64,000 nt of DNA from Enchytraeus crypticus (Eukaryota > Annelida > Clitellata > Enchytraeida > Enchytraeidae): contig CAJHZI010000741.1 of the NCBI GenBank assembly GCA_905160935.1, positions 1,917,001 through 1,981,000 of the forward strand. The letters run 5' to 3'. Under the pieces are notes generated by a model. That model worked only from the letters and a program-made list of their open reading frames with translations, made no database searches and was not told where the DNA came from. Below are positions 2,461 to 53,409 of the stretch, piece after piece; the first letter of the stretch is position 1; every line of letters starts with the position of its first letter. A program made the position numbers and the translations under genes.

Positions 2461-2480
2461 AATATTTAATATTGATTACA

Positions 2481-9407: not shown

Positions 9408-9439
<32 letters not shown>

Positions 9440-10504: not shown

Positions 10505-10556
<52 letters not shown>

Positions 10557-10563
10557 TATCTGT

Positions 10564-10605
<42 letters not shown>

Positions 10606-10653
10606 CGAATCTTTAAATAATCTAACATTCCTAATATCGGTCTGATATTGACT

Positions 10654-10696
<43 letters not shown>

Positions 10697-10835
10697 CAGT
10701 CAATATCATACCGATATTAGGAATGTTAGATTATTTAAAGATTCGCTTATGTGTGGAATGTGGACATGAAGAGGAAATCGGAAGACAGCGAAGAGTGGAG
10801 GCGTTATATGCCATAGACCTGCCAGTAGGCAGTGC

Positions 10836-10901
<66 letters not shown>

Positions 10902-10904
10902 TGC

Positions 10905-10970
<66 letters not shown>

Positions 10971-11999
10971 TATAATATATTATATACTCTCGAATCCGTC
11001 ACAATGACTTTGCTAATATCATAACTGTATAATAAACATTTAGATCTCTAGAGAAGTGGGAGGCTACACGGACATAGCTACCTCCACTCACCCCAATGGC
11101 AGTTTCCAGTGGTTAGACAAATACTTTTAAGTCTAATTGTCTCATCGAATGGATCATCATGTATTAGCCTAAGCTCCCTGAGCTCGCATCTACCCGTTCT
11201 GATACTTTAGCTAATCAGTGCATATCCAATTGGACTGTGAGGTGGCGTTCCAGATTAAGTAGATCTTTGTAGTATATTACCTATTGATTAGATTAAATTC
11301 AGTCACAATCTTCTCGGAAAATTTGCAATTATTGTAGTAATGATAGATTAGAATCATTTGCTTATTCTGTGCTTCACTTTTTGTGCTTACAGTTACCCGA
11401 CAAATCGGAAAAAGGATTGTATGTGCTTAGCCGAGCCCACTCCTAAACGTTCATCCTCATATTCGTCATCTGTAGAACGTGGGCGGAGCTTAACTTTTGC
11501 AAACGTTCAGCCACTTCCTCAGAAGCGAGAGCGCAAGGCCACCAAGACCCTGGGAGTTATAATGGGGGCTTTTATCGCCTGTTGGCTTCCGTTCTTCGTA
11601 GTTGCCCTAGTGCGACCCTTTGTACCGGATATACCACCTATAGTAACCAGTCTACTGCAGTGGTTGGGATATGCTAACAGCTTTCTAAATCCAATCATCT
11701 ACGCCCGGTTTAATAGAGACTTTCGCGGTCCGTTCAAAGACATTGTCACTTTTAGGTGTCGGGGTATCAATTCCCGGCAACGCCTGGAAACCTACGCGGA
11801 GCAGTTCGGAGCCTACGATGCCCTCCATGTAGGCAATAATCAACGGCTCAGTTGTAGCGAGCATAGAGACTCAAAGACAATCAAAAGTAGCTCATTTTCT
11901 GCTCAAGAGCCGAATAGCTCTCAGAGTTATGATACTAATCAGAGAAAGTCCGCTCCTGTTGTAGTGGATGTAAGGCAGCGGGACAGTATAATTCTATAA
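6402..11999 (+). CDS. Biogenic-amine GPCR, 5-HT1-like; five 3' exons (5' partial)
   Basis: This is the gene-level entry; coding exons are 6402-6568, 9096-9286, 10176-10381, 11052-11111 and 11393-11999. All introns are GT-AG and the phases join without a frame break, giving about 410 residues. It should be a plasma-membrane rhodopsin-class receptor for an amine transmitter. TM4 ([17 protein letters not shown]), the ECL2 cysteine (DQC), TM5 ([12 protein letters not shown]), a long third cytoplasmic loop of about 190 residues, TM6 with CWLPFF and TM7 with NPIIY are all present. The [13 protein letters not shown] stretch, the [12 protein letters not shown] block and the [11 protein letters not shown] tail resemble invertebrate 5-HT1-type serotonin receptors; a tyramine/octopamine or adrenergic-like receptor is the alternative. 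N-terminus, TM1-TM3 and the DRY motif must lie left of the window. Splice signals, not transcripts, define the exons. Confidence 0.88.
6572..6716 (-). mobile_element. SINE family 1 copy (minus), tRNA-derived
   Basis: On the minus strand it reads a tRNA-like head with box A (TGGCGACGTCGG) and box B (GGGGTTCAAATCCTGGG). The tail that follows is CGTCACTGACATCGCTTTCG, then GTGAGGAAACTGACG, and ends in TTAGCTTT. It is inserted only a few bases past the donor of the TM4 exon. Sister copies lie at 8145, 9552, 12477, 17364, 49140, 53710, 54000, 61814 and 63387. Confidence 0.85.
6889..7363. repeat. 21-bp minisatellite, about 22 copies
   Basis: The unit is ACATTTGAACAACCCATGAC plus one base, with AACAACCC/AACCATGC variants in the 5' half. 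Because 21 is divisible by three, open frames run through it on both strands; these are by-products of the repeat and not genes. It is in the intron between the TM4 and TM5 exons. Confidence 0.95.
7402..7500 (+). mobile_element. SINE family 4 fragment
   Basis: It contains GACCAACCGTAAACTGCAC, TTGAGCAA and GGGAAACCACCTCAGAA. The same blocks in the same order occur at 40405-40610 (plus) and, as plus-strand text, at 36155-36340; a weak match starts near 30160. Its head resembles that of family 2 (GAAGAATAGACCAAC). Confidence 0.55.
8145..8266 (+). mobile_element. SINE family 1 copy (plus), decayed head
   Basis: It carries box B GATGTTCAAATCCTGGGCTC, then CGCCCGTTACTGACATCACT and TGACGTTAACATTAGCTTTA. 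The box A half is degenerate. It is intronic to the receptor gene. Confidence 0.75.
9096..9286 (+). CDS. GPCR exon: TM5 and start of ICL3
   Basis: The acceptor is GTCTGACAG and the donor is GATCAG/GTCAGA. Entry is in phase 1 (G+GC gives Gly) and exit in phase 0. It encodes [19 protein letters not shown] followed by [12 protein letters not shown]; the proline in FYLPL is the class-A TM5 proline. It then continues into an Arg/Ser-rich loop ([10 protein letters not shown]). The base composition is far more GC-rich than the surrounding intron, which supports a true coding exon. Confidence 0.92.
9300..9510. repeat. AT-rich microsatellite block
   Basis: Interrupted (TA)n runs starting 14 bp after the TM5 exon donor; no other content. 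Confidence 0.9.
9552..9687 (-). mobile_element. SINE family 1 copy (minus)
   Basis: As plus-strand text it reads CCAATGTTAACGTCAG, then GCGATATCAGTGACGGACGA, CAGGATTTGAATCC and ATCGCCACTGGCACCAGC. Box B is slightly diverged. It is in the intron between the TM5 and Cys-cluster exons. Confidence 0.8.
10176..10381 (+). CDS. GPCR exon: third cytoplasmic loop with Cys cluster
   Basis: The acceptor is CCTTACAG and the donor is ATGAG/GTAGGC; entry is phase 0 and exit phase 2, matching both neighbours. It encodes 68 residues of polar loop rich in Asn, Gly, Ser and Arg ([20 protein letters not shown]). The end is NPCCSCCFM, four cysteines in five residues. No membrane segment is present. The cluster could be palmitoylated or redox-active (inference). 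The exon length is 3n+2, so skipping it would shift the frame. Confidence 0.85.
10479..10750. repeat. Inverted and direct copies of a LINE tail around (AT)n
   Basis: The block at about 10602-10657 is repeated in inverted orientation at about 10693-10750, with only (TA)n between them. Part of it (CATTCCTAATATCGGTCTGA) also lies in direct orientation at about 10479-10510. The right arm is the 3' end of LINE family B. Confidence 0.85.
10705..10835 (+). mobile_element. LINE family B 3'-end fragment
   Basis: It translates to [12 protein letters not shown]...[18 protein letters not shown], the last coding part of the LINE also seen at 62340-63060. It is followed by (TA)n in place of the usual (GA)n. 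A short duplication of the GCAGTGCACAAATATA junction lies near 10898. It is 5'-truncated and inactive. Confidence 0.75.
10836..10980. repeat. (TA)n microsatellite, two blocks
   Basis: Two (TA)n runs are separated by ACAGTGCACAAA and lie 72 bp before the next receptor exon. Open frames of alternating Ile/Tyr across them are artefacts. Confidence 0.95.
11052..11111 (+). CDS. GPCR exon: short 60-nt ICL3 exon
   Basis: The acceptor is GATCTCTAG and the donor is CAGTG/GTTAGA. Phase 2 on entry (AG+A gives Arg) and on exit (TG+T gives Cys) fits both neighbours. It encodes [19 protein letters not shown]. At exactly 60 nt it could be skipped without changing the frame (20 residues), so it is a candidate alternative exon. 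Confidence 0.75.
11393..11999 (+). CDS. GPCR last exon: TM6, TM7, C-terminal tail
   Basis: The acceptor is TGCTTACAG in phase 2 and the stop is TAA at 11997. After a Ser-rich loop end comes [16 protein letters not shown] and [11 protein letters not shown] (TM6). TM7 is [20 protein letters not shown], with NPIIY in the place of NPxxY. Helix 8 is [12 protein letters not shown], then [20 protein letters not shown]. The about 85-residue tail is rich in Ser/Gln/Asn and ends RQRDSIIL, a possible PDZ-type C-terminus (inference). I see no AATAAA close after the stop. Confidence 0.95.
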
Positions 12000-17560: not shown

Positions 17561-19734
17561 CACTATTATAATATTGTCCTAAAACAAGTTCAAATTAAAT
17601 TAAATTGAAAATTAAAATTAAGATTAATTAATTCAAATTAAGTTAAATTGTTCAGTGGCGAAGTACTATTGTAATATTGTCCTAAAACCTGCAATTTAGC
17701 TAAACGTTTCTGCGAGCCACTCCCGTAGACAGACATAAAAATATAGCCTGTATTCCCTGGATTGAATATATATACAATTCAATGTACTAACAGAGCTTAT
17801 CAAATCTTTGTTTATTTTCTTGTTTAGTATGAATTCGGTACGTCATTGTTTAGCCATTTTACTATTAGTGATAATTTAATTTGTAATATTTAGTAAGACT
17901 TTTAATAACGATCATTGAATTGTTTTATATATTAACAATTAGTTCAAGGCAGGTAGGCCTAACTGTCTGGTCCGAGACTCATATTTAATTATGCCCTTTA
18001 AAATTCCAATACATCTATAGTAATCTGTCTGTCGTGTGTCAATGCAAATAAGGAAGTATGATATTAGTACTGAAATTACTTTAATGGCATCTTTGAAGAA
18101 TTCAAAAAATATGTCTGCACTACCATAGACTTTCTCGTTCTTTTAACTCCAATGTATAAGTAACGTGGATTGATTTCTTACTACTCATTTTGTTAAGCCC
18201 AAATAAATTAGCCAACATCGGAAAAATCAACTCTAAACAGTCTTGCGATATCTAATTAGGTGACAAAGGAATTTTCTACATTCCTAAATGCAGCTATTTG
18301 TGGTAAAATCAGCGACTGTCCTCTCGATTGCGCAAAATATATCTTAATTCTTCAGCTCCATTACTACATGATGAATCTTAACGCAAGAATTGCTCGTGTC
18401 ATCTATTGAGTCATTGTAAAAAAAATTACTAGGTCTACAACTGAGCGTGTTTATTTATTTTACTTTATGAATAATAACTAAATAAAATAAAAGCATTCAT
18501 TATTTCATTTATTTATTTTACTTTATGAATAATAACTAAATAAAATAAAAGCATTCATTATTTCATTTATTTTACTTAATTAGCTTGTTAATTACGTTAA
18601 TGCGTTGAGATATAGTGTTAAGGTATTAATCGCGTTAGTTAAAATAATTTCTTATTAAGCTAGCATGCTAGTCAAATAAATTGTCCATAAGGCTAACTAA
18701 TTAGGCCTAATTAAGATAGGTTTTTAACTGAGATAGATAGCTGTTTAAGTTAAATAACAAAGATAACTTGATAATTAAAATAGTCTGTTAATAGAGATAG
18801 CTTGTTAATTTAGCTAACGTGTTAATTTAGATAGCTTGTTAATTAAGTAGAAATGTTATGTAAGATACCTTGTTAATATCATGTTAAGTCTCTTTCATAT
18901 GATCTTTGCTAATGAATAGCAACTGAATTGTGCTGGTTGAGAAGAGAAGTTACATCTTAAAAAAATACTCACAAAGCTGCAGTATCAAGTCATGTGCAAG
19001 TCGTCAATTTTAACAAATTAACTTCAAATGTTAATTTGAATGTAGTTAATGTTAATCTGACAGATAAGCAGGATGAATATAGAGAAATAGGACAAATCAT
19101 AAAATATTACATGTATAATTTGTCTATTATCATATTAAATTTTGTGTCTTATTTATAATTATAGATATATTATGTTCTCAAAAATGTTATACTCTTATGT
19201 AGTTACAAAAAAATAATATATTTTCAGAAGTTACAATTAAAGATAGGTCTATATTATGTTTTCAAAATGTTATACTCTGGTGTAGTTACAAAAAAATAAT
19301 ATATTTTCAGAAGTTACATTTTTGATACAAATTAAATAACGTTGTAATGGTACTGGTAACTTAATTTCGCATAAAATGTAGAAAAACTGTAACTCGATAT
19401 AACCAAATAAGATCTTAATATCTTGAGATTATTAGACCCCAATGTCCCGTCTATTGTCTCGACTCTGAGTATTTTACTTTGTTTTAGTCTGGACTATCGA
19501 GATACAAAAAGATTCGACAAGACTAATTATTCTCAAAAACCTCGTGGCAATTAAAGAAGAATAACTGATCTCTAAATCTTCATGTTGAATGAGCAGCATG
19601 GAATAGCATATCCGAATACCCAACCTATAAACCATCAGCAGCCAGCTAACTTCTGCAAATTTCCGATAAATACAGATGAAGTAGGAGATAAGCAAACTGA
19701 CAAGTGTGATACTGATTCTTAAACATTGTCAGAA
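17561..19734. other. AT-rich intergenic stretch before the large intronless gene
   Basis: It holds two small direct duplications: about 60 bp twice at 18455-18570 (TTTACTTTATGAATAATAAC) and about 80 bp twice at 19165-19320 (GTAGTTACAAAAAAATAATA). Otherwise I see nothing recognisable. The TCTTAAACATTGTCAG just before 19733 could be a splice acceptor for an upstream non-coding exon. Confidence 0.5.
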
Positions 19735-22700
19735 ATGATAAGTCATTCTGATCAGCCAGAAAGTTTGAGGAATATCGGAGGAGATTTGAATCGCTTAAGC
19801 TTGATGGACTTGGAACGTCAGCTGAAGGAAGAGTTTCGAAGCCTTCAGGTGGAACAGCCAAATGCCGGTCTTCAGTCGCCCCGTCAAGATTTATTTCAAC
19901 AAAATTCTCGAGGTCAACGACAGAGGGAGGCATTATGGCAGGCAGTAAATATCGAGCAGCTAAGAGGTGTCTCTATATCTGCGAATTGGGATAGACCTAC
20001 GTTTGGAACAAGATATGACGTGGATCTTGCCCAGAAGAAGCCAATCCAGAGATTTTCTCGGCCGCTGAAATATTCTGTAAATGCCGAATTCAGTAACGAA
20101 CCTCAGACCAGCCGTGGACAGCAGACGACAAGAGGATGCACGCAGATGACTGATCCTGTCAGATCCACTGTATCCAAGCAACAATTAGACACTCTTCCCT
20201 TTCGATATCGTCAACATCCAGTGCCGACTTATGGAGAATTCAAGCAGGAAATAATGCACGGTCCCAGTGAACTGTTTAGAGAACCGAAGGTACATCAGTC
20301 GTCAGCTGAGCACAACGAAGAACTGACGACAGATCCACATTGGTCAGCATCGACTCCTAGCAAGAGTTCAGCATCAGTATATCAGAGTGACAGATATATA
20401 TTCGATGTAAGTAATAAACTATCATATGTACCAAACGATGAATATTTTCAGAAGTATTTCGTTGATAAATCTGTCAAAGAATCTGAACAGCTTCCCTTTA
20501 GAGAAAGAAGTTTTATGGATATAAAATCGATGCATGAAAATATACGCAGCGTAGACCGGCAATCTATTTTACTCAACTCTGAACATGGTCTCAGACAGGT
20601 ATCTAATCGAATACCAGATTTCTTCGAAGTCTGTGAGACTGAAGCTTTGAGAGATAATTACTTGGAAGATATTCCAGTTAGAGATAGCAATCCCGTGTCG
20701 TTAGAAAATGATAATAAAGCATCTGAACAGGAATATAGGATAAAAAGATATGCCTCGGATATAAGAGCACTGCAATATTCACTTAGGTGTGGCAAATTGA
20801 AAGGAGACTATTTGGAAGACAGAAATTACTCAATCAAAGAGCGATTGAAATATGCTAGTGGCTATGAGACATCACAAAACTCTCTCAGTCATCATATAGT
20901 TGGAGAACACAGTGAAACAAATAATGCTAGAGTCAGTCGCTTTAATGAAAATTTCAACAATGCCAGTGATCACTGGTACACTATTTCAAATTATGCATCT
21001 TCTAATCCTTCTTCAGATATGATTTCATCAAAAACCAAAACTTTATATAGCAATAAATTGTCAGAAAGCTTTGCCATAAATAATGATCTCAACGGTGGTG
21101 CTATCGCCAGTGGCAGTTACAGTAGAGAAATCCCATCATCAAATACCTTCAGGCTGGAACAACTGATCTCAGGTGAACTAAAACTGAAAGATAGAGCGCA
21201 GATTAACAAAAATAATGACATTAAAGGAAGTAATGGCTCTGTTACAACTTCAGACAACAAAGTATTTGATGAGATGAGGATAACTTTCCTCGACAAACAG
21301 AGTAATCTTAACAAGGGTTGTACATCTTCAGATAATCCAAGACGCTTCAGTGCATTTAACTATAGTGCACGTAGCACACAGCTAGACCTTAAAGATCAGC
21401 ATCGCGATTTTAACTCCAATTCACAATTTCTAAGAAATTCGTGCGAACTGAATTCATCATCGAATGCCAGGACAGTAAACAGGCACGACAATCTCTATAA
21501 AAATTTCTCCTCTAAGGTCACTACTGATGGCCGACTATTGAGGCAGTTGAACAGGAAAGAAGAGCAGTATAACAGGTCTTATAGCGACAGAGGTTTTCAG
21601 AACGAAGCAAGCACCCAATTCGCTACTTCACGGCAACGTAGCTCAGTTCTAGATAAACTCGAAGATCGACGAAAATATGAATATTTTAAATCCCAAAAAT
21701 TTCGTCGTGATTTTAATCGCGTGCTTGACAACCTGTACAACTACGACTGGGCGTACTATGCCGGAGCGGTGTCGCCTGAGACACGTAAAGAGAGGAAGCT
21801 AAGAACTACAACCGTTCCTAGATTTCGCTCTGGTCACCACCAAGACGAGCAATATAGGGACGAGGACGGAAACAACAGATGGAAAGCCATAAATGAGACG
21901 AGGTATGATAATGATGATGATGATGAATACGATGATGATGATAATAATGATGAAGTATATGAAAAAAGTAACATAGAAGATGACTCCTCCAGTCATTCAG
22001 CTACCGGATGCCATGACGAAAACGGTAAAGATGTGTATTCCACGAGTGGATCACTGAAAGAATATGGCTGTCATGAAGCTCAGAGGGATTTGCGCTTCAT
22101 GGATTTGGAACGAGAACATTCTAACGAGATAAATTTAATAGATGAATATCGATCAACTTCTGCTGATCGATCCTATGATACGTCTCAATACGAGAACAAC
22201 AACGCCACAGGACAAGCTTTCCACGAGTCTGGAGATCTTCAACAGCGTGGTGCTTGCGACAAAGTTACTGACTTTTCATCAAAGATAAAAGGAGAATCTA
22301 TCAGAGGAAGGAGATCAGCCGGAAGCTACCGCTCTAGCCAACAGGAGGATATAATTCTGCAGCGCGGAGGACGGGATCAAAGGAAATCTCTAACAAAGTC
22401 ATCGTCACGTTCTCCAAGAGGCTCCAGGTCATTCTGTGAGGGACTTCAAAACATTTTCATATTTGATCGGGGAAGAATTTCTGAGATAAAGAAAGGACGT
22501 GCCAGAGGAAGCAATGGAGTGGCTGCTCGCCAGTGCAGCAGTCATCCTGCAGGAGTTCCTAGCATGAATCCATCAGATCCGCAGCGAAATCGTCAAAATC
22601 CCAATCAGCTGCGAAGTACGAATAAGTCAAATCTGGATGAAAATGGCGGAATGCTTGGTATGTTTAAGTCACATCAGGATGAAAATGGCGGAAAGCCTAG

Positions 22701-23511
22701 TACGGATGGAAATGCTACCACTACATTTTCTACTGAGGCACAAGAGAGAACTGAGCAGCGCATTGTAAATGAGGATAAATGTACGTCTAGCGAAAGAACT
22801 AGGGAACTGGTCGATTACACTAGTCATAATAAGGATTTACGGTCTCATATTGCATGCAGCACCTGTCCAAACTGCAAAATATCTCTCCTTAATTCTGCTA
22901 GTTGCAATTCTCGGACAAATCAAGAGAAAATTGACGACAAAGCACTACACGTATCTCTCAAAGAACACGATGAAGTCGGAACAGTGGTGTCTCAGTTACC
23001 GACTCATAATGCTTCCAACAACCCGAATGAATCATTTGAACCTAACGTCAGTTTATCAGCATTACCGACTCCAAATGCTAATGTAATCTTTCAAAGTCCT
23101 ACAGACTCTGTAGCAATTAAATCGGCTGAAGCTACAACAGTAAATAGCAACAAGCGCGGTTTGTTCAGGTTTTTCTACAACTTTGGCAAACCGCAAAAGG
23201 CGCTAGATTCTGAATCGATTCCAGACAAGGCTGTTGTCGAGCAGGATACTGGTCTACGAAAGAGGTTTAATTTTCGCAGAGGGTACGTTAAGCCAGGTCT
23301 TGTCATAGCACTGCTGGTCTTTACATACCTGGTTTATTCCATTTCCAGACCGACGCTTCGAGCTCTGCAGTTGCAGATAGTGCAATATTTAGACGATGTC
23401 ATTAGTCTCTCTGATAACGATAGCTTTCTGAGAATTCTTGGAAGTTGGCTGAGTAACTGGCAGCCTCATTTTGATCCAGAAGACGACTCCGAGAATAATC
23501 ATTTCTGCTAA
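19735..23511 (+). CDS. Uncharacterised 1258-aa polar protein with C-terminal membrane anchor, intronless
   Basis: I do not recognise this protein. A TAA at 19720 lies in frame just upstream, so ATG 19735 is the first possible start in this exon. The 3.8-kb frame is open throughout while all neighbouring genes are finely split. Most of it is hydrophilic and probably disordered, rich in Ser, Asn, Arg, Asp and Tyr, with an acidic run near residue 730 (DDDDEYDDDDNNDEVY). A Cys cluster (CSTCPNCK) lies near residue 1040. One hydrophobic segment near residue 1190 (GLVIALLVFTYLVYSI), preceded by basic RRGYVK, leaves about 55 residues ending NNHFC. This suggests a type II-like or tail-anchored protein with a large cytosolic part (inference). 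It is not a KASH protein, since the Pro-rich end is absent. A small internal repeat (LDENGG/QDENGG) occurs near residue 970. Confidence 0.85.
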   Translation: MISHSDQPESLRNIGGDLNRLSLMDLERQLKEEFRSLQVEQPNAGLQSPRQDLFQQNSRGQRQREALWQAVNIEQLRGVSISANWDRPTFGTRYDVDLAQKKPIQRFSRPLKYSVNAEFSNEPQTSRGQQTTRGCTQMTDPVRSTVSKQQLDTLPFRYRQHPVPTYGEFKQEIMHGPSELFREPKVHQSSAEHNEELTTDPHWSASTPSKSSASVYQSDRYIFDVSNKLSYVPNDEYFQKYFVDKSVKESEQLPFRERSFMDIKSMHENIRSVDRQSILLNSEHGLRQVSNRIPDFFEVCETEALRDNYLEDIPVRDSNPVSLENDNKASEQEYRIKRYASDIRALQYSLRCGKLKGDYLEDRNYSIKERLKYASGYETSQNSLSHHIVGEHSETNNARVSRFNENFNNASDHWYTISNYASSNPSSDMISSKTKTLYSNKLSESFAINNDLNGGAIASGSYSREIPSSNTFRLEQLISGELKLKDRAQINKNNDIKGSNGSVTTSDNKVFDEMRITFLDKQSNLNKGCTSSDNPRRFSAFNYSARSTQLDLKDQHRDFNSNSQFLRNSCELNSSSNARTVNRHDNLYKNFSSKVTTDGRLLRQLNRKEEQYNRSYSDRGFQNEASTQFATSRQRSSVLDKLEDRRKYEYFKSQKFRRDFNRVLDNLYNYDWAYYAGAVSPETRKERKLRTTTVPRFRSGHHQDEQYRDEDGNNRWKAINETRYDNDDDDEYDDDDNNDEVYEKSNIEDDSSSHSATGCHDENGKDVYSTSGSLKEYGCHEAQRDLRFMDLEREHSNEINLIDEYRSTSADRSYDTSQYENNNATGQAFHESGDLQQRGACDKVTDFSSKIKGESIRGRRSAGSYRSSQQEDIILQRGGRDQRKSLTKSSSRSPRGSRSFCEGLQNIFIFDRGRISEIKKGRARGSNGVAARQCSSHPAGVPSMNPSDPQRNRQNPNQLRSTNKSNLDENGGMLGMFKSHQDENGGKPSTDGNATTTFSTEAQERTEQRIVNEDKCTSSERTRELVDYTSHNKDLRSHIACSTCPNCKISLLNSASCNSRTNQEKIDDKALHVSLKEHDEVGTVVSQLPTHNASNNPNESFEPNVSLSALPTPNANVIFQSPTDSVAIKSAEATTVNSNKRGLFRFFYNFGKPQKALDSESIPDKAVVEQDTGLRKRFNFRRGYVKPGLVIALLVFTYLVYSISRPTLRALQLQIVQYLDDVISLSDNDSFLRILGSWLSNWQPHFDPEDDSENNHFC

Positions 23512-26126: not shown

Positions 26127-26194
26127 ATGGTGGACGCAGAGCGCCAGCCAGATGTCGTGTGTAACGGAACATCTGAAGATCTAGCTGCGGCAAA
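26127..26194 (+). CDS. GPCAT1: GPCAT exon 1 (start codon)
   Basis: ATG at 26127 opens MVDAERQPDVVCNGTSEDLA, ending at a good donor (AAA/GTAAGT) in phase 2. The N-terminal part of this family is variable and polar, as here. The choice rests on the donor, the join to exon 2 and the position before the conserved exons; a transcript could move the start. Confidence 0.6.
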
Positions 26195-26281
26195 GTAAGT
26201 GGATTAGTTTTATACGTAGTGTGGAGTAGTGTAAAATACTATAATTTTAAATGAAATAGTGATAATAATTGTATGGTAGTA

Positions 26282-26335
<54 letters not shown>

Positions 26336-29300
26336 TACTTAATAATAATAATAATATCTAAAAATAATACTTATAAATAATATTAATAACATCATATTTA
26401 AATGTAACTTTATATTGATTATATAATTTGAAATTGATTAGTTTTTCACTATCTGAAATTTTTCATGATTAAACATTCCGAGAAAATTTCTCTGAAGTTC
26501 ATCCAAATTTCCAGCCTTAGATGACCTTTATATAAACGAATTGTAAACATTAATCCACTGTGGAAATTTAAGATAATTGCTTCCTCATTAATGTAATGTG
26601 TTATATATAATATTACTTGTAATTTATATGGACAGATAGATTTGTTTGATATAGCTGAACTATGTATGCGTTATGAACAGTTTTGAATGTGTTTATTCAA
26701 TATATACTTACTGACAGTGCTGTGTTTTATTTGTATATATATTTCCATGGAAAATTCGGCGTGTTATGTCGAAGTGATGAAAAGGCTCTAGTCACCGTTC
26801 TGTTCGCCAACTCTCAACTGATCTTCCAGAATACCTATAATCCATACTCACTGCATATTTCTAGTGAATCAGTCACTTAATACGCAGGAGATATACTATC
26901 TGTGTAAATAATCCTAATATAACTAAACAGTTAATCATGCAGTTCTTGTTGTCATTTTTAAGAAAAAATTCTATTTTACTTGTTTGCAGCAACAGATCTG
27001 TATCCATCACATCATCTAATGGTACTGCCTCTAACGGAAGAGATGTCAATTCCAAGCAAGCGGTAGCTGTTCTGGTGTCACTTGATAATCATGGAAATAG
27101 AGCCAAAGTTGAACATTCCATTCTGGTAATTTACGATACACATACAATAGAATACAATGTAATAATTGTGATTTGATGCCTGTTTCATCAGATAACTGAG
27201 ACATATTGAGGATGTCGCTAGACAACTGATTAAAGCAGATCCTTATGGACTATGCAGTAAGAAAACTACAAACTACATATTCCAAAAAAGCCAAAGCTAA
27301 TAACTCCTCGAAGGCATGTCAGCGACAATTAGAACAATGGATTTGAACCCTGTGCTTAATGATCCGCTGTCAAGTTTCTTCCTTCAATGGCCCAGTTCAA
27401 CTGCTGAGAGGTGAAGAGGTGTAGTGATGAATGAATTTTATGAAATTTAAATATTAACAATATGACAGCAATTGAAATTGTTGAATATTGATGTGAATTT
27501 ATGGAAAATGTAAATGTTTTGTGTAATTTGAATATTGAATAATCTGATAAAAAAGCAGCAATAGTATGTTTGAAAAGTTTAGACTGAGTTTTAGTATTCA
27601 TGATAATTAGAACTCAATCCGATTCAGTTATCGTGAGTCAGAGTGACTCGTATCAATTTGTTAATTAGTAGTTGCAGATCACCAGATTAATATGTGCAAT
27701 TGTATAATTAATCTACGTCTGCATCATTATTTGTTCAGACGATAATTAGGGTGAGTCGATTGAGGGAGAAGATTGTATTCATGATCTCAGTGATCTCGCT
27801 GCTCGTCATGGCAGTCTCTATGTTTATCCTGCAGTGGTTTATTCCTTACTACTACACTGTCAGTGCACCACTACTTATTGGCCTACGCATAGTACTATAT
27901 GTGTAAGTATGAGGAATAGATATGATACACATAGCATGGTGTTGTATGTGTAAATATGTGGAATAGATATGATACACCATAGTACTATACATGTAAGTAT
28001 GTGGAATAGTAGATGTGATACACTTAGCATGGTGTTGTATGTGTAAGTATGTGGAATAGATATGATACACCATAGTACTATACATGTAAGTATGTGGAAT
28101 AGTAGATGTGATACACTTAGCATGGTGTTGTATGTGTAAGTATGTGGAATAGATATGATACACCATAGTACTATACATGTAAGTATGTGGAATAGTAGAT
28201 GTGATACACTTAGCATGGTGTTGTATGTGTAAGTATGTGGAATAGATATGATACACCATAGTACTATACATGTAAGTATGTGGAATAGTAGATGTGATAC
28301 ACTTAGCATGGTGTTGTATGTGTAAGTATGTGGAATAGATATGATACACCATAGTACTATACATGTAAGTATGTGGAATAGTAGATGTGATACACTTAGC
28401 ATGGTGTTGTATGTGTAAGTATGTGGAATAGATATGATACACCATAGTACTATACATGTAAGTATGTGGAATAGTAGATGTGATACACTTAGCATGGTGT
28501 TGTATGTGTAAGTATGTGGAATAGATATGATACACCATAGTACTATACATGTAAGTATGTGGAATAGTAGATGTGATACACTTAGCATGGTGTTGTACAT
28601 GTAAGTATGTGTAATAATGGATGTGATGCACTTCATATGATGCTTTAAAGTATGTATGATGTGATACACTTTGTATGATGCTTTAAGTGTAAGTATGTGT
28701 AATAGATGTAATAGATGCTCCACGCTTATATAGTTCTCCACGTGTATGCATGTGTAATTGATGTGATACACTGAAGTCTATTGGATCTCTTAATTCTACG
28801 TGATACACATTGTTTTAATACTCTCTATACCATATATAATCAGTCAGTCATATCTGAGTCATTGACAGCCAATAGACAATTTTTCTCTCACTAAGTTTTA
28901 CATCTGTTTAACATATGTTGCTGCACCACCTGTGGGGTATCGAACAAAATCCGGTATGATCTTGCACCTGTGGTCTCTTGCTGATCGGGAAAGTGTTATA
29001 CAATTTTGCCATCAACTGGTACTTAAGTGCAAATTATTTGTCAAATCATCTTTCATCAACGGTTCCAGAATTTTCTCCCTGGGTTTACTTTCTTTTCATT
29101 CTGTGTGTATTTTCCCTGTCAGAAAATCATACCACTTGGAGTCTGCTTTCCTGTTTAATCAATTTAACATATTTGAAATTGCATTTGCATGAATTCATAG
29201 TTAGAGCAAATAAACATAGATCTGTTTTAATGGTTAAGTGTAATTTTCTTGACTTGTATTTAACTAAATACAATTTAATTTTAAAGTTTAGAAGTATTTT

Positions 29301-32300
29301 AAATTAAATAAACTTTAAAAAAATTTCATTTTTGTGGAATTGTTACAGAAAATATAAGTGGCAGTATTTCCTGATTGATTTCTGCTACTTCGGCAACACA
29401 ATCCTTTTTGTTTTTATATGGTTAGTACTGGTCATTGTAATAGTTATAATATACGTAGAGACAGAGTTTTCTAATCTGAATAACTAAGATTTGAACATTG
29501 TATTAAATTCAATTGTTGTAGTAGCTATTAGCATACGTCCGAAAGGGCATTTGGTTAGTGAGCGCCTAAGCTCTAAAAATTTCTACAAAAGTTGAAACGA
29601 AATGGAATGGTCTGGGCATATTGTGATTGGTGTGGGACAGAGAGGATTGGAGAAGGTCTATTCTTATCCCACCCCATTTAAACTGGGATTTTAGGGAAGA
29701 TGATGATGATGATGATGATGTTTTAGTAACTTCTAGATTTAATGGTACAGTATTAATTACATTGCTATTTCTTGTCTGATAAATTACTTGTCATCAGTTC
29801 GTCTGATAAGTTGTTGCCATTAGTCTGTTTATTAGTATATTTTTTATAAATTACTAAAGTATTCAATGTAAGATGGAAACTGTTGGGTGCAAATACCTGA
29901 TAGGATGAATGTCTTCCATTCCACTTAGAATATCATTTTTCCTCTTGCCTTTAAGTAATGAAATATGGCGGCATTGTAATTGTTTTTAGCCCCTTTTGGT
30001 TTAGCGCATTCTTGAAAGTAAATGTCATAAATTTAATATCAATTCGATTAAGACTGCTGACTAATTGTTATAAGTTGTGATACCAGTGTTGTGAAAGGTT
30101 CACTGCAGAGTATAGCATCTGTATCGTGCTCATATTTTATTAGATACTGAAATCATCTAAGAAGAGCGAAGAAAAACCACCTCAGAAATTCTTTACCATG
30201 CCAAATGTGCCCTAATTATAAAGTTTGCCATTTAAATTTAACGCAGTCAAATTCTTCATGGCATGTTCTTTTGGGAGCCTGAAAGGAGACTGTGATTAGG
30301 TCAATGTACCCCTGTGTGGTTGAACATTTAAGAGTGAAAGGGGCTGACGCAAACTTGAATGCACCGATATGATTTGATGTGTTACAGGGCGGCCCCATGG
30401 CAGCCGGAGTTGTTTACAGTGACGTTTGCCCTAGCGACAGGACCAGTGGCTTGCGCCACAATACTATTCCGCAACTCTCTCGTGTTTCACTCTGTCGACA
30501 AGATGACGTCCGTCTATATACATGTCCTTCCTATGTATCTCGTCTATGTGTATGTACTGCCCATGTATCTCGTCTATGTGTATGTACTGCCCATGTATCT
30601 CGTCTAGGTGTATGTGCTGCACATGTATCTCGTCTATGTGTATGTGCGCCCGTGTATCTCGTCTATGTGTATGTGCTGCCCGTGTATCTCGTCTATGTGT
30701 ATGTGCGCCCGTGTATCTCGTCTATGTGTATGTGCTGCCCATGTATCTCGTCTATGTGTATGTGCTGCCCATGTATCTCGTCTAGGTGTATGTGCGCCCG
30801 TGTATCTCGTCTATGTGTATGTGCTGCCCATGTATCTCGTCTATGTGTATGTGCTGCCCATGTATCTCGTCTAGGTGTATGTGCTGCCCATGTATCTCGT
30901 CTATGTGTATGTGCTGCCCTGTATCTCATCTAGGTGTATGTACTGCCCATGTATCTCATCTAGGTGTATGTACTGCCCATGTATCTCATCTAGGTGTATG
31001 TACTGCCCATGTATCTCGTCTAGGTGTATGTACTGCCCATGTATCTCGTCTAGGTGTATGTACTGCCCATGTATCTCGTCTAGGTGTATGTACTGCCCAT
31101 GTATCTCGTCTAGGTGTATGTACTGCCCATGTATCTCGTCTAGGTGTATGTACTGCCCATGTATCTCGTCTAGGTGTATGTACTGCCCATGTATCTCGTC
31201 TAGGTGTATGTACTGCCCATGTATATCGTCTAGGTGTATGTACTGCCCATGTATCTCATCTAGGTGTATGTACTGCCCATGTATCTCATCTAGGTGTATG
31301 TACTGCCCATGTATCTCATCTAGGTGTATGTACTGCCCATGTATCTCATCTAGGTGTATGTACTGCCCATGTATCTCGTCTAGGTGTATGTACTGCCCAT
31401 GTATCTCATCTAGGTGTATGTACTGCCCATGTATCTCGTCTAGGTGTATGTACTGCCCAGGTATCTCATCTAGGTGTATGTACTGCCCATGTATCTCGTC
31501 TAGGTGTATGTACTGCCCATGTATCTCGTCTAGGTGTATGTACTGCCCATGTATCTCATCTAGGTGTATGTACTGCCCCTGTATCTCATCTAGGTGTATG
31601 TACTGCCCATGTCTCTCATTCTAGTTATGTACTCTGCCTATGTATCTCGTCTAGTGTGTATGTACTGCCCGTGTATCTCGTCTAGGTGTATGTACTGCCC
31701 GTGTATCTCGTCTAGGTGTATGTACTGCCCATGTATCTCATCTAGGTGTATGTACTGCCCATGTATCTCGTCTAGGTGTATGTACTGTCCGTGTCTATTG
31801 TTACGAGTAAAATCATTGTAATGCAACTATTCTTTAATTTCTAATATCTGTTTAATTCCTGTAATGATATTTCATCGCAATCCACTTAAGTGCAAAGGAG
31901 CTTTGAATCCCGATGTTAATATTATCCAAATAACTGAATTGAATTTAAAAATGAATACACCATGTACCCGCGATCAGGAGTAGATTCCTATCCCTCTTAC
32001 TATCAACTTCCTTAAATTATATGTATTTAATGACATTTTTGTAGACAACTGTTCTATCTTTATAAATTCTAAATTAATTTTCTGCTTGCTCTTCCGATTA
32101 ATTATGATAAATATCTAGGTGTCTATCCATTACAGCCAATGGCAGTCACGGTGTACCACGAATAGTGTTCTCCGGTGATTGTTATGTTTACAGTTTTAAC
32201 TTTAACATAATAACCCAACAGAGTTCTGAATATTTGACTCTGATGTTCTGTTCAACAGGATACGATGGTATCCGGACATTGTATCTCAGCACTGGTACAG

Positions 32301-34563
32301 AAGTTTTCTGCTAAACTTCAGCGAGGAGCCGGGATACATGTTTATCTGGCTTGTCGGTGTGGCCTTTGGATGCTTCGCCTTTCACACGGTACTAGACTGA
32401 TCATGACTCCTAAACTAATGTTGATAGTTTTAATCTTACTAAATAATTTTTGTTTTGTTTCAATTGTCATTCCTGCATTTGAATATCTAGATATATAGTT
32501 CTTTTTTTTTGTTATATTCTTGACTAATTTAGAATAATTTTGTATTTGGTTAAATATATTTAATTTTAATCGTGTAAAAAGCATTCAGTACTCCTATGAT
32601 AATAAAAAGCTTCTGTTTATATTCTAATCGGCTGGCGATCGAATTCATAGAAGGCTTGGCTGATAAGGAAGAGTTGAGGGGTTAAAATCCTCATTGAACT
32701 TTCTCTTACAGGCTCTCTGGATGATTTGATGCTCAATTATTACGTTTCAGATAGTCTATATGATAGTGGTTTATGCTATTATGTTTCAGATAGTCTATAT
32801 GATAGTGGTTTATGCTATTATGCTTCAGATAGTCTATATGATAGTGGTTTATGCTATTACTTTTCAGATAGTCTATATGATAGTAGTTTATGCTATTACG
32901 TTTCAGGTAGTCTATATGATACTGGTTTATGCTGTTACGTTTCAGATAGTCTATATGATAGTGGTTTATGCTATTATGCTTCAGATAGTCTATATGATAG
33001 TGGTTTATGCTATTATGTTTCAGATAGTCTATATGATAGTGGTTTATGCTATTATGTTTCAGATAGTCTATATGATAGTGGTTTATGCTATTATGCTTCA
33101 GATAGTCTATATGATAGTGGTTTATGCTATTTGTCGACCTGATCCTTCATATCTAAACAGTTATCGCTATCTCTCAACACGAGACAACTGGATTTCCAGT
33201 ATGCTTAACTTCTTTGGTCACAAGTTAGTATCTCTCAGCATTTTCACTGTTTCCATTAAGCGTCAGGTTGGATCATGCAATTAATGATGCTTTAAATATA
33301 TCAATCAATGAGCATTTTTAGAAGCGTCGCTTGAAAGTCTTCTATTTTATAGTTACTTTGTCAAAATGTAGAAGACACTCTTCTATATCAGACAATAGAT
33401 AAGAATTCCAATAATTGAAGTACTCTATTTTGTCCATGGCAACAACCGGTGTGAGAGTCTAAACCTTTACAAGCAGTTACTTTATGCATAAAATTCATCT
33501 CTATCGCAGAAATAAGTAGCTGCAGAAATCCCATCGATGGATGAGCTTTGTAGTTTCATTTATATTATTAGTTTTATTTTCTGTTTTAGTTAATATGAGG
33601 CACTGATAAAAGCAGCGTCGAATCCTTCAATGGAAACTCTCCACCTTTTCAGTTATGCAATTGCCTACGTTTTCCTATAAATAGTCATGTATTCCCGTGA
33701 ACCTCTGTTAATTATTCCTCGTGCCTGTTTCATATGACTACATATTTTGATATGCAACTGTTCAGCTCTCTTCACTTTTTACACTGTATTGATCTTGTAA
33801 ACATGACATAGTGGACATTTCACATATTTTGTCCCGCACTTTATTTATATTGACGACTATAATAATCAGTCTAAAGATTAAGTGTAGTGCTCTGTTTACC
33901 TTCATTTTAATTGAATTCTAGCATTGATATTGTTAGTCTAACAAATCTTATCTGCCATTAATTTTAGGTAGTTTTGTTTTCATTCTCTTCGGACTGTTTT
34001 TTTAATAAATTGCTTAATTTATTCAGATATATAGTATTTATTTCCCGGTGTTGTGCCCGGGTGTTTGAAGAATCTACCAACCGCCGACTGCACATGTCGT
34101 AGCAGGGGACTAAAGTACTAAGATCTAAACCAACATCAGAAAGGGCATTTGGTTGGTGAGCGCCTAGGCTCCAGAAATTGCTACAAAATTTCCTAAAACG
34201 AATGGAAGAGATTTCGATATGGTATGGGAGAAAGAGGAGTGGAGAAGGTCCATTCGTATCCCGACCCTAATTAAACTGGGATTATAGGTAAGGAGAAGAA
34301 GAATGTACATTATTTATTAATCGATAAATTAATTTATGCATTGATTTATTGATGTAATGATTTACAGGCACAGTTTTCTGATGTTCTCTCTATTTAACTG
34401 GCTCTACTGCATAGTTAGTCTGTTACTGGCTGTTCTACTCTATCGATATTTTATCGCCCACTCGATCTTCATCATCCTTATCTCTCTCAACATTCTCTGG
34501 AATGGCTCCGTCTACTATATGGATGTGTTTGCAGTCAAAGGCTTTTCCGACGACTCTGCCTAG
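26127..34563 (+). CDS. GPCAT1: Glycerophosphocholine acyltransferase (GPCAT/GPC1, DUF2838), nine-exon model
   Basis: Gene-level entry. GPCAT transfers an acyl chain from acyl-CoA to glycerophosphocholine, giving lysophosphatidylcholine for phosphatidylcholine recycling, in internal membranes. Modelled exons are 26127-26194, 26990-27062, 27211-27256 (weak), 27739-27902, 29349-29420, 30388-30549, 32259-32388, 33102-33223 and 34368-34563. From exon 4 on, every GT-AG phase agrees and gives 281 residues; with the N-terminus about 340, somewhat short for the family. Diagnostic blocks are FLIDFCYFGN, NSLVFHSVDKMTS followed by IHVLP, IRWYP, SYRYL and a last exon with LWNGSVYYMDVF. About eight membrane helices are expected. 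The family is reported absent from chordates. Three exon edges are embedded in minisatellites (separate entries). Exon 3 to 4 phases do not match, so one small exon is missing or wrong. Confidence 0.88.
26990..27062 (+). CDS. GPCAT1: GPCAT exon 2
   Basis: The acceptor is TTGTTTGCAG and the donor is AAGCG/GTAGCT. Phase 2 entry gives Asn; exit is phase 0. It encodes NRSVSITSSNGTASNGRDVN, a Ser/Asn-rich cytosolic stretch with no family motif. Confidence 0.55.
27211..27256 (+). CDS. GPCAT1: GPCAT exon 3, tentative
   Basis: The only open frame here reads DVARQLIKADPYGLC up to a good donor (TGCA/GTAAGA), leaving phase 1. The acceptor that fits exon 2 (ATTGAG) is weak, and exon 4 expects phase 0, so either this exon is wrong or a further small exon lies between 27257 and 27738. 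Confidence 0.35.
27285..27400 (-). mobile_element. Decayed SINE family 1 copy (minus)
   Basis: As plus-strand text: AGCCAAAGCTAATAAC, GCATGTCAGCGACAA, GGATTTGAACCCTG and ATGATCCGCTGTCAAG, in the order of the family with many substitutions. It is in a GPCAT intron. Confidence 0.5.
27739..27902 (+). CDS. GPCAT1: GPCAT exon 4: first membrane helices
   Basis: The acceptor is ATTTGTTCAG in phase 0 and the donor is ATGT/GTAAGT in phase 2. It encodes RVSRLREKIVFMISVISLLV, then MAVSMFILQW, FIPYYYTVSA and LLIGLRIVLYV: a basic entry and two hydrophobic spans, as at the start of the GPCAT membrane domain. The last 15 coding bases and the donor are the first unit of the 93-bp array that follows. Reading past the donor meets TAA at once, so later donor copies would add a premature stop. 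Confidence 0.88.
27888..28607. repeat. 93-bp minisatellite, 8 copies, seeded on the exon 4 donor
   Basis: The 93-bp unit is made of two related 46-47-bp halves: CATAGTACTATACATGTAAG... and AGCATGGTGTTGTATGTGTA.... The first unit is the true exon end plus donor (CATAGTACTATATGT/GTAAGT). Nearly every half-unit keeps GTAAGTATG, giving about 15 donor-like sites. Middle units are almost identical and the edges diverge; short relatives continue to about 28770. Long open frames on the minus strand come from 93 being 3 x 31 and are not genes. Confidence 0.95.
29349..29420 (+). CDS. GPCAT1: GPCAT exon 5: DFCYF motif
   Basis: The acceptor is TTGTTACAG and the donor is ATATG/GTTAGT; phase 2 on both sides. 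It encodes KYKWQYFLIDFCYFGNTI then LFVFIW, containing the FLIDFCYFGN signature of the family. This short exon is the strongest evidence for the assignment, together with exon 6. Confidence 0.93.
29538..29720 (+). mobile_element. SINE family 2 fragment with (GAT)n tail
   Basis: It contains GAAAGGGCATTTGGTTAGTG, GTGGGACAGAGAGGATTGGA and AAACTGGGATTTTAGGGAAG, followed by (GAT)7-like repeats. The head before AAAGGGCAT is missing. It lies in GPCAT intron 5. Confidence 0.8.
30388..30549 (+). CDS. GPCAT1: GPCAT exon 6: NSLVFHSVDKMTS motif
   Basis: The acceptor is GTGTTACAG in phase 2. It encodes WAAPWQPELFTVTFALATG, PVACATILFR, NSLVFHSVDKMTS and VYIHVLPMYLVY; the FHSxDKxTSxxIH block is the best conserved part of DUF2838 proteins. 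The nearest donor is TATGT/GTATGT at 30549, phase 2, joining to exon 7 as VYVIRWYP. Because the exon end is the first unit of a 30-bp array, a second identical donor sits at 30579. Using it would add YVLPMYLVYV in frame; a third read-through meets TAG at 30605. Confidence 0.93.
30519..31800. repeat. 30-bp minisatellite, ~42 copies, seeded on the exon 6 donor
   Basis: The unit (about 30 bp, some 27 bp) contains TATCTCGTCTATGTGTATGT then ACTGCCCATG. The first unit is the end of exon 6 with its GT/GTATGT donor. 5' units have TCTATGTGTATG; from about 30915 on nearly all have TCTAGGTGTATG. The 5' part mixes TGCTGCCC, TGCGCCC and TACTGCCC variants while the 3' part is homogeneous, showing expansion from one side. 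Frames through it on both strands are artefacts. Confidence 0.97.
32259..32388 (+). CDS. GPCAT1: GPCAT exon 7: RWYP block and next helix
   Basis: The acceptor is TGTTCAACAG (phase 2) and the donor is CACACG/GTACTA (phase 0). It encodes IRWYPDIVSQHWYRSFLLN, FSEEPGYMFIWLV and GVAFGCFAFHT: the RW after the lumen/cytosol turn, then a helix. It joins both neighbours without a frame break. Confidence 0.88.
32734..33139. repeat. 39-bp minisatellite, 10 copies, seeded on the exon 8 acceptor
   Basis: Each unit is TTTCAG or CTTCAG followed by ATAGTCTATATGATAGTGGT and TTATGCTATTAT. The last unit is the true 5' end of exon 8. All ten AGs are in the same phase and the frame IVYMIVVYAIMFQ (13 residues) is open from the first to the last copy. 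Units differ by single substitutions (GTTTC/GCTTC/CTTTTC, one CAGGTAGTC). Confidence 0.97.
33102..33223 (+). CDS. GPCAT1: GPCAT exon 8: SYRYL block
   Basis: Modelled from the last CAG of the acceptor array, in phase 0, to the donor CACAA/GTTAGT in phase 2. It encodes IVYMIVVYAICRPDPSYL, NSYRYLSTRDNW and ISSMLNFFGHK; the (T/N)SYRxL turn is typical of the family. Any of nine upstream acceptors would extend the exon 5' by 13 residues each without a stop. Confidence 0.85.
34045..34302 (+). mobile_element. SINE family 2 copy, near full length
   Basis: Head CCCGGTGTTGTGCCCGGGTG, then CCAACATCAGAAAGGGCATT, GAGCGCCTAGGCTCCAGAAA, ATTCGTATCCCGACCCTAAT and a decayed purine tail GGAGAAGAAGAA. It ends 65 bp before GPCAT exon 9. 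Confidence 0.8.
34368..34563 (+). CDS. GPCAT1: GPCAT exon 9: last helices and stop
   Basis: The acceptor is GATTTACAG in phase 2 (AA+G gives Lys) and the stop is TAG at 34561. It encodes HSFLMFSLFNWLYCIVSLLL, AVLLYRYFIAHSIFIILISL and NILWNGSVYYMDVF, then AVKGFSDDSA. Two helices and the WNGxxYYxxVF end fit the C-terminus of the family. Confidence 0.9.
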
Positions 34564-34770
34564 AAAAGTCTGCTTCATAGAGAATCTAGAACATTCTACT
34601 TCAAAAGAGAACCTAGAACATTTTGTTTCAAAGCGAATCTAGAACCTTCTGCTTTAAAAGAGGATCTAGAAAATTTTGCTTCATAGAAAATCTAGAACAT
34701 TCTGCATAAAGGAAAATAAATCTAGACGATTTTGCTTTACATGGTAGATAAATCTAGGTAATTCATCTTG
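34564..34770. repeat. Degenerate ~30-bp repeats in the GPCAT 3' UTR
   Basis: Starting at the stop codon, variants of GAATCTAGAACATTCTGCTT recur about six times. They are more diverged than the intronic arrays. One copy ends in the poly(A) signal region. Confidence 0.8.
34715..34720 (+). terminator. Candidate GPCAT poly(A) signal AATAAA
   Basis: AATAAA 152 nt after the stop codon, inside the 3' UTR repeat. Confidence 0.5.
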
Positions 34771-47346: not shown

Positions 47347-47561
47347 TTAATTAAAATGTGTGCCTTGTACTTTTAAATAGACATGCACAAACTCTTGACA
47401 GCAAAGACTTCCAGTTTCTGTGAAGCCTTCGAAACGAATACTGTTGAGATAGTCAATTAGAATCCTATTGTGCTCTCCAGATTCTTGCATGATCACAGCT
47501 TGGAGGAAAGACTGGCCCAACCCACCGTTTGTAAGCACCGCCGCAGAGTAGATGTTTTCTG
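47347..47561 (-). CDS. Putative exon A of an unrecognised gene (minus)
   Basis: On the minus strand, after an acceptor-like GTAGATTTCACAG near 47562, the frame reads NIYSAAVLTNGGLGQSFLQA then VIMQESGEHNRILIDYLNSI and RFEGFTETGSLCCQEFVHVY, to a stop. The block MQESGxHNxxLIxxLxSxxFxGFTExG recurs at 48705-48914, so selection on the protein is likely at least in the past. I do not recognise the family. It may be a terminal exon or a gene relic. Confidence 0.5.
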
Positions 47562-47820
47562 TGAAATCTACACGTATACAAACGTGCGGAAATGATTTGT
47601 TAGTTTATAAAGTTACGTTTATAACGTCACTTTTAGTATCGCAGTGTGGCTTTTGGTCACAGCTTGGAGGAAAGACTGGCCCAACCCACCGTTTGTAAGC
47701 ACCGCCGCAGAGTAGATGTTTTCTGTGAAATCTACACGTATACAAACGTGCGGAAATGATTTGTTAGTTTATAAAGTTACGTTTATAACGTCACTTTTAG
47801 TATCGCAGTGTGGCTTTTGG
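47493..47820. repeat. 164-bp tandem duplication over the exon A acceptor
   Basis: TCACAGCTTGGAGGAAAGAC... at 47493-47656 is repeated almost exactly at 47657-47820. On the minus strand each copy holds the 5' part of exon A, its acceptor and about 75 bp of upstream intron, so the acceptor is present twice. Confidence 0.9.
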
Positions 47821-49352: not shown

Positions 49353-49640
49353 TTCCCGTGTTGTGTCCGGGTTGTTTGAAGGATAGACCAACTGGTGACA
49401 GCACGTGTCGCAAAAGGCGACTAAGGCACTAAGATCCAAACCAACATCAGAAAGGGCATTCGGTGGATGAACTCCTTAGCTCCAGAAAATGCTACAAAAA
49501 TTATAATGAATGGAACTAAATAGGGGATTGACTGATGATATTGTGTGGGACAGAGAGGATTGGAGAATGTCTATTCGTATCCCGACCCTAGATAACCTGG
49601 GATTCAAGGAAAGATGATTGTGGTGATGATGAATTTAATT
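49353..49640 (+). mobile_element. SINE family 2 copy, near full length
   Basis: CCCGTGTTGTGTCCGGGTTG, GGCGACTAAGGCACTAAGAT, CATCAGAAAGGGCATTCGGT, GGGACAGAGAGGATTGGAGA, TCGTATCCCGACCCTAGATA, tail GATGATTGTGGTGATGATG. A second 3' end (GACCCTAGTTAGACTGGGAC) with its own (GAT)n follows to about 49712. Confidence 0.85.

Positions 49641-53179: not shown

Positions 53180-53232
<53 letters not shown>
52981..53232. repeat. (TA)n microsatellite cluster
   Basis: Several (TA)n blocks with TATTCTATATA spacers. Confidence 0.95.
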
Positions 53233-53234
<2 letters not shown>

Positions 53235-53405
53235 GGTTGGTGAGCGTCTAGGCTCCAGAAATTGCCTCAAAAATTTAAACAAATGGAAAAGTCTCAAATA
53301 GGGGATTGACTGAAGGATGATATGATATAGGACAGAGAGGATTTGAGACAGTCTATTCGTATCCCGACCCTAGTTAAACTGGGATTCAAGGGCAGAAGAT
53401 AATGA

Positions 53406-53408
<3 letters not shown>
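53233..53408 (+). mobile_element. SINE family 2 fragment
   Basis: TTCGGTTGGTGAGCGTCTAG, GATTGACTGAAGGATGATAT, GTATCCCGACCCTAGTTAAA, CTGGGATTCAAGGGCAGAAG, short GATGATGATA tail, enclosed by (TA)n on both sides. Confidence 0.8.

Positions 53409-53409
<1 letters not shown>

What the first reader, a model, noticed from the sequence alone, without database searches (positions are those of the whole stretch)
26127..34770. Three splice sites of one GPCAT gene are each the seed of a minisatellite
The donor of exon 4, the donor of exon 6 and the acceptor of exon 8 each lie inside the first or last unit of an independent tandem array (93 bp x 8, 30 bp x ~42, 39 bp x 10). The three arrays have unrelated sequences. 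In each case the repeated unit spans the exon-intron border, so the splice signal and its exon flank are copied. A fourth, older array begins at the stop codon. Minisatellites falling on three borders of one gene by chance seems unlikely. A local mechanism that starts duplications at exon-intron junctions, or tolerance of redundant splice sites there, would be new to me. The exon calls rest on matching phases and the DUF2838 motifs.
Basis: partly seen in the sequence, partly recalled or inferred. Interest (0 to 1): 0.88.

Follow-up and report, generated by a model that had tools for sequence, protein, structure and literature searches.

The report
Splice sites copied into minisatellites
In this gene of a small soil worm three of the borders between coding and non-coding DNA have been copied many times into the neighbouring intron, and a sample of the same genome suggests that this is common there, so the gene looks typical and not an oddity.

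Summary
A GPCAT-like (DUF2838) gene of 8 coding exons (26127-34563) has arrays of 93, 30 and 39 bp whose units carry the donor of coding exon 3, the donor of coding exon 5 and the acceptor of coding exon 7; a weaker fourth array starts at the stop codon. Homologous proteins support the exon-nearest copies as the true borders.

The reading "unlikely by chance, special to this gene" fails. In 98 further exons from 4 gene families of this genome, 30 of 178 borders lie inside a tandem duplication, against 71 of 452 intron control points and 0 of 98 exon middles. At that rate 3 or more of 14 borders has P=0.43. An acceptor excess in CCT genes (13 arrays against 3.6 expected) did not recur in the second sample (4 against 5.2).

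The structure is known: "mirages" of amphioxus genes and the human IFI6 donor minisatellite. New here, as far as my searches show, are the annelid and the scale. Most likely, tandem duplications are frequent and those crossing a border are tolerated because surplus copies fall on the intron side. Which copies are spliced was not tested.

The parts
26127..26194 (+). coding exon 1 (start codon at 26127)
   Evidence: spliced model, GT donor
26990..27125 (+). coding exon 2
27739..27902 (+). coding exon 3; its last 15 bp and its donor lie in the first 93-bp unit
27888..28616 (+). array 1, 93 bp x 7.9 (two half-units of 43 and 50 bp, each with a GTAAGTATG donor copy); runs into intron 3
   Evidence: of 17 donor copies (one beyond the array) only the first keeps the frame open
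29349..29420 (+). coding exon 4
30388..30549 (+). coding exon 5; its 3' end lies in the first unit of the 30-bp array
30522..31794 (+). array 2, 30 bp x 42.5, units with GTATGT donor copies; runs into intron 5
   Evidence: only the first 2 of 41 exact GTATGT donors keep the frame open
32259..32388 (+). coding exon 6
32738..33131 (+). array 3, 39 bp x 10.1, each unit 13 bp of intron end (...TTCAG) plus 26 bp of exon start; runs from intron 6 into exon 7
   Evidence: all 10 acceptors give an open frame, 349 to 466 aa
33102..33223 (+). coding exon 7 (conserved acceptor = last copy, 33101|33102)
34368..34563 (+). coding exon 8 with the stop codon
34560..34705 (+). array 4, about 26 bp x 5.5, degenerate, from the stop codon into the 3' UTR

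Best explanation
These are 'mirages': minisatellites that arose by local tandem duplication across exon-intron borders of an ordinary GPCAT-type gene in an annelid, very probably Enchytraeus crypticus. Tandem arrays are dense in this genome's introns (11-13% of sampled intron bases). A duplication that crosses a border leaves one full exon with its native splice signal at the outer edge and puts all surplus copies inside the intron, where they are spliced out with it; so it is tolerated like an intronic duplication, the array can grow only into the intron, and duplications inside exons are purged. Shown: the arrays, the conserved borders at the exon-nearest copies, a rate at sampled borders like that at sampled intron points, none at exon middles. 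Inferred: that the exon-nearest copy is the one spliced, that exon copies are purged by selection, and that slippage or unequal exchange made the copies.
For: Gene and borders. Sample, self-similarity test: 22/89 acceptors, 8/89 donors, intron control points 71/452, exon middles 0/98 (tests). TRF test: 15/43 and 5/46 acceptors, 2/43 and 5/46 donors covered by an array. Read by eye, copies that include exon sequence: 13/43 CCT acceptors, two of them with only 6-7 exon bases, 6/46 acceptors of sample 2, one degenerate, and 5/89 clear donors. Surplus copies are mostly unusable: in GPCAT 16 of 17 and 39 of 41 donors break the frame; of 11 CCT acceptors printed (two of them microsatellite-type without exon copy), 10 have an in-frame stop within 20 codons upstream. 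Intron array cover 13.4% (TRF periods 10-300) and 11.4% (periods 12-300, microsatellites left out).
Against: CCT acceptors exceed random placement (13 arrays against 3.6 expected; none of 2000 simulations reached it), which plain tolerance does not predict; sample 2 does not repeat it (4 against 5.2), but it took the best-scoring exons with only 350 bp of flank, so it is not a like-for-like repeat. Sample borders are ends of profile matches, not mapped transcripts; in L058 and L098 the match itself starts in an inner copy. The self-similarity test does not exclude microsatellites, at borders or at controls. In GPCAT all ten acceptors of array 3 stay in frame, so there the surplus copies could be used, and within the gene alone border arrays are somewhat more than random placement gives (P(>=4)=0.025).
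Confidence: 0.72

Rival explanations
1. Junction-seeded duplication: a process tied to splicing or transcription starts duplications preferentially at 3' splice sites, perhaps helped by sense-strand (ATTG)n tracts that sit just upstream of acceptors.
For: CCT acceptors 13 against 3.6 expected; acceptors 22/89 against donors 8/89, P=0.008; sense (ATTG)n tract within 100 bp of 14/89 acceptors against 1/89 donors.
Against: No excess in sample 2; borders as a whole equal the intron rate; nine of the 13 CCT cases come from two genes; in the GPCAT gene itself two of the three are donors and the window holds no (ATTG)3 run on either strand.
Confidence: 0.15
2. The copies are used: the arrays give alternative donors and acceptors and so a set of protein isoforms, as for human IFI6. 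In GPCAT the 39-bp array could add 13 to 117 membrane-type residues in frame.
For: All 10 acceptors of array 3 and the first 2 donors of array 2 give open frames; precedent in IFI6.
Against: 39 of 41 and 16 of 17 donor copies are unproductive; none of 11 homologues has an insertion there; 10 of 11 printed CCT acceptors have a stop in frame just upstream.
Confidence: 0.08
3. Assembly error: the repeated units are artefacts.
For: The published assembly combined Illumina and PacBio reads, and 80.6% of the PacBio reads map back.
Against: Units differ from one another in an ordered way, and the same pattern recurs at independent loci with diverged copies; that an assembler rarely invents diverged copies is general knowledge, not tested.
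Confidence: 0.03

Closest known systems
Amphioxus 'mirages' (Adh3, globins BflGb6/BflGb9; also PGBD5 and troponin C)
   Same: Minisatellite-like tandem duplication across exon-intron borders, at 5' and 3' borders, many copies keeping AG/GT signals; PGBD5 already has two such repeats in one gene (PMC3087553, PMC3902484; passages read).
   Different: Another phylum (annelid); three in one gene; an estimate of how common it is (30/178 sampled borders). Amphioxus has RT-PCR and haplotype data, none here. Units in BflGb6/9 are 150-160 bp, here 30-93 bp; Adh3 has 10-72 bp.
Human IFI6 (6-16) minisatellite with multiple splice donors (Turri, Cuin and Porter 1995)
   Same: A minisatellite whose units provide splice donors (cited in PMC4526556, passages read; the original was not read).
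   Different: There downstream units are used as donors; here nearly all downstream donor copies would break the frame.
Variable tandem repeats at exon-intron boundaries of human genes in segmental duplications
   Same: Repeats at the boundary can change gene structure and may form introns (PMC2812944, passages read).
   Different: Human recent paralogues; mostly longer exons or introns by repeat number, not described there as arrays of one splice signal in the passages I read.
Intron gain by tandem genomic duplication
   Same: Duplication that copies splice signals (search listing and starts of abstracts only: PMC4974935, PMC3443670; also discussed in PMC3087553).
   Different: Here existing introns are lengthened; no new intron was looked for or seen.

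Membership tests
Mirages (border-spanning minisatellites) | tandem units that span an exon-intron border | tested here: met
Mirages (border-spanning minisatellites) | both 5' and 3' borders can be affected | tested here: met
   two donors and one acceptor in this gene; both kinds in the sample
Mirages (border-spanning minisatellites) | many units keep AG/GT signals | tested here: met
Mirages (border-spanning minisatellites) | regular splicing is not disturbed | not testable with these tools
   no RNA data; the protein alignment is only consistent with it
Mirages (border-spanning minisatellites) | length instability between haplotypes or somatic cells | not testable with these tools
   one assembly held, no reads
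GPCAT / DUF2838 gene | DUF2838 domain above the curated cut-off | tested here: met
   110.5 bits against 25.2
GPCAT / DUF2838 gene | similarity to named glycerophosphocholine acyltransferases | tested here: met
   42% to Owenia and 41% to Haliotis records so named; 53% to Ridgeia (name cut off in the listing)
GPCAT / DUF2838 gene | acyltransferase activity | not testable with these tools
   enzyme assay needed
IFI6-type donor minisatellite | several donor copies are used in mRNA | not testable with these tools
   only reading frames were tested: 1/17 and 2/41 donors productive

The most novel reading that the evidence does not exclude
This worm carries a genome-wide, splicing-coupled duplication process: 3' splice sites, often with sense-strand (ATTG)n tracts that resemble repeated branch points, are hot spots that copy exon starts into the intron, giving thousands of redundant splice sites that buffer splice mutations, supply isoforms (in GPCAT up to 117 in-frame membrane-type residues) and feed intron gain.
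Probability: 0.12. Interest if true: 0.85.

Novelty: new member of a known kind. Interest (0 to 1): 0.55.

Why it matters
If the sampled rate holds (30/178 by the self-similarity test, 24/178 clear by eye), about one splice border in six to seven in a standard soil-toxicology worm lies in a tandem array. Its introns would then be a natural experiment on how the spliceosome picks one of many near-identical sites, on tolerance of redundant sites, and on intron lengthening and gain by duplication. It also suggests caution with gene models and short-read mapping at such borders.

Tried and rejected
Rejected: that the gene is special in its genome (P=0.43 for 3 or more of 14 borders at the sampled rate). 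Not accepted because unreplicated: a general acceptor hot spot. Rejected: that the multiple-of-three units (93, 30, 39) mean selection for frame; CCT acceptor arrays have many other periods (80, 73, 109, 76, 61, 67, 46, 83 bp among them) and stops. Donor hexamer conservation in array 2 (0 changes at its six positions in 34 units of exactly 30 bp) says little, because the units were picked by that motif and look like recent copies. My first guesses of a flatworm and of amphioxus, made while reading, were dropped after COX1. The neighbouring serotonin-receptor-like gene shows no array at the exon matches found; its other exons were not located. Rfam gave nothing at its gathering scores. Matches were only partly fetched: of 128 kinesin matches two single-exon ones were dropped and 20 of the other 126 taken; 20 of 81 myosin; of 36 adaptin matches the top, long one was dropped and 6 of the other 35 taken; always the best-scoring ones. 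Five of 57 CCT-family matches (C373, C259, C400) were left out. PF00171 did not complete.
Full report
What is in the window. A spliced model of eight coding exons from 26127 to 34563 gives 349 aa with GT..AG introns and a DUF2838 domain at E=6.7e-32. Several of its relatives are named glycerophosphocholine acyltransferase 1. In an alignment with 11 homologues the three borders carry no insertion (P0008 lacks two residues beside the first border, P0006 one a few residues after the third). So the donor of coding exon 3 (27902|27903), the donor of coding exon 5 (30549|30550) and the acceptor of coding exon 7 (33101|33102) are conserved borders, and the exon part of each unit matches conserved coding sequence. 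The arrays therefore grew out of the exon edges, not the other way round (inference).

Anatomy. The 93-bp unit is two related half-units of 43 and 50 bp, each with GTAAGTATG. The 30-bp unit repeats a GTATGT donor, 41 exact copies. The 39-bp unit is 13 bp of intron end plus 26 bp of exon start, with ten TTCAG acceptors. In each case the surplus copies lie on the intron side. Using an inner donor breaks the frame in 16 of 17 copies at array 1 and 39 of 41 of array 2, while all ten acceptors of array 3 keep the frame, giving 349 to 466 aa.

Which genome. G000 has 524,188,772 bases in 802 contigs. The COX1 match on contig C802 is 95% identical to records labelled Lumbriculus variegatus, Mesenchytraeus and Enchytraeidae. 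C802 is 15,205 bp. The E. crypticus paper gives 525,192,231 bp, 910 scaffolds, GC 35.41% and a 15,205-bp mtDNA (PMC8460440, passages read). I take the window to be E. crypticus; the organism name itself came from no record of the window, and the contig count differs (802 against 910).

Is it special to this gene? I sampled other genes of the genome. Sample 1: nine loci of the CCT chaperonin family, 52 of 57 exon matches; the five left out lie on C373, C259 and C400 in long open frames. Sample 2: the best-scoring 20 kinesin, 20 myosin and 6 adaptin exon matches with 350 bp on each side (90, 91, 93), after dropping two single-exon kinesin matches and one long adaptin match. Borders are the ends of profile matches. 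A point counted as duplicated if a local alignment (score 36 or more) to the neighbourhood (800 bp in sample 1, 340 bp in sample 2) covered at least 8 bp on both sides of it; microsatellites were not excluded. Acceptors: 16/43 and 6/46. Donors: 2/43 and 6/46. Intron control points: 57/360 and 14/92. Exon middles: 0/52 and 0/46. Together borders 30/178, controls 71/452 (P=0.72), exon middles 0/98 (P=5e-7 against controls). The TRF version gives acceptors 15/43 and 5/46, donors 2/43 and 5/46, against intron cover of 13.4% and, with microsatellites left out, 11.4%. At 30/178, three or more of 14 borders has P=0.43. So the gene looks typical of its genome.

Random placement of arrays. Leaving microsatellites out, CCT acceptors carry 13 border arrays against 3.64 expected (0 of 2000 simulations), donors 2 against 3.67. 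In sample 2, acceptors 4 against 5.17 and donors 5 against 5.06; one array (L098) was set aside by the placement rule. The acceptor excess is thus not general on this evidence; nine of the 13 CCT cases come from two genes (C795 with 4, C368 with 5). The GPCAT gene itself: six arrays, four at exon ends (one of them the stop-codon end), 1.34 expected, P(>=3)=0.13-0.14 and P(>=4)=0.025.

Reading the sequences. Copies of exon edge plus splice signal were read in CCT acceptors (for example 83 bp x 4.8 in C372, 46 bp x 3.9 in C368) and in sample 2 (kinesin L058 acceptor and donor, L060 acceptor, L072 donor 44 bp x 8.8, L061 donor, myosin L081 donor and L092 acceptor, adaptin L095 and L098 acceptors). 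Weak cases: L063, L066, L092 and C445 donors, L090 acceptor. In L058 and L098 the profile match begins in an inner copy, so the true acceptor lies further down.

How it most likely works. Tandem duplication is frequent in this genome's introns. A copy made inside an exon is harmful and is lost. A copy made across a border leaves the native exon with its signal at the edge and the rest in the intron, so it behaves like an intronic duplication. These steps are inferred from the counts; splicing was not observed.

Against what is known. Border-spanning minisatellites were named mirages in amphioxus Adh3 and found in globin genes, where RT-PCR suggests normal splicing and haplotypes differ in copy number (PMC3087553, passages), and in PGBD5 and troponin C (PMC3902484, passage). 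The Adh3 paper itself is not held. The human IFI6 minisatellite provides several donors that are used (PMC4526556, passages). Tandem repeats at exon-intron boundaries of human genes are discussed in PMC2812944 (passages). Of my searches with annelid and Enchytraeus terms, one search found two papers in all, and searches listed the best 12 of 1,871 and 10 of 2,147; by title and abstract start none listed reports splice-border minisatellites in annelids. One of the two, an Amynthas genome paper (PMC12130307), was not opened. The E. crypticus genome paper has no word beginning with 'splic' in its held main text. An earthworm metallothionein paper describes intronic minisatellites, not border copies, in the passages I read; it also mentions unexplained fourth-exon duplications (PMC12783039).

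Limits. No RNA, one assembly, borders from profile matches, a sample of 98 exons plus this gene, and sample 2 chosen by score.

Noticed in passing
introns of sampled genes, e.g. L041 9171-9552, L043, L048: (ATTG)n runs are strongly sense-strand biased in genes (92 runs against 8 antisense in 132 kb; of 43 gene loci 16 have more sense, 4 more antisense, 23 none) and lie within 100 bp upstream of 14/89 acceptors but within 100 bp downstream of 1/89 donors (antisense 1/89 each). TTGAT resembles a branch-point consensus (recalled). Many runs lie inside arrays, so they are not independent.
   Followed up: partly
29535-29711 (+), 34133-34292 (+), 49444-49632 (+), 53231-53409 (+), 56246-56426 (-): A dispersed element of about 180 bp, 75-78% identical to the copy at 29535, two copies inside this gene; shorter or weaker relatives elsewhere in the window and in many fetched loci. 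SINE-like by length and dispersal only.
   Followed up: partly
6385-11999 (+): A serotonin-receptor-like GPCR gene, exon matches at 6385-6564, 9074-9223 and 11499-11975; a 21-bp x 22 array lies in its intron 327 bp past an exon match, not at a border.
   Followed up: partly
2478-6039: A 3.5-kb array of a 233-bp unit (x15) just upstream of the first located exon match of the GPCR gene.
   Followed up: no
47493-47820: Two copies of a 164-bp unit in tandem, 100% matches: very recent duplication or an assembly effect.
   Followed up: no
19723-23511 (+): A 1262-aa open frame without Pfam match, charged, with a hydrophobic segment near its C-terminus by eye.
   Followed up: no
G000 C259:219813-222410 and C400:245545-248142: Two chaperonin-family matches with identical scores and spacing on two contigs: a recent copy or uncollapsed haplotypes.
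   Followed up: no
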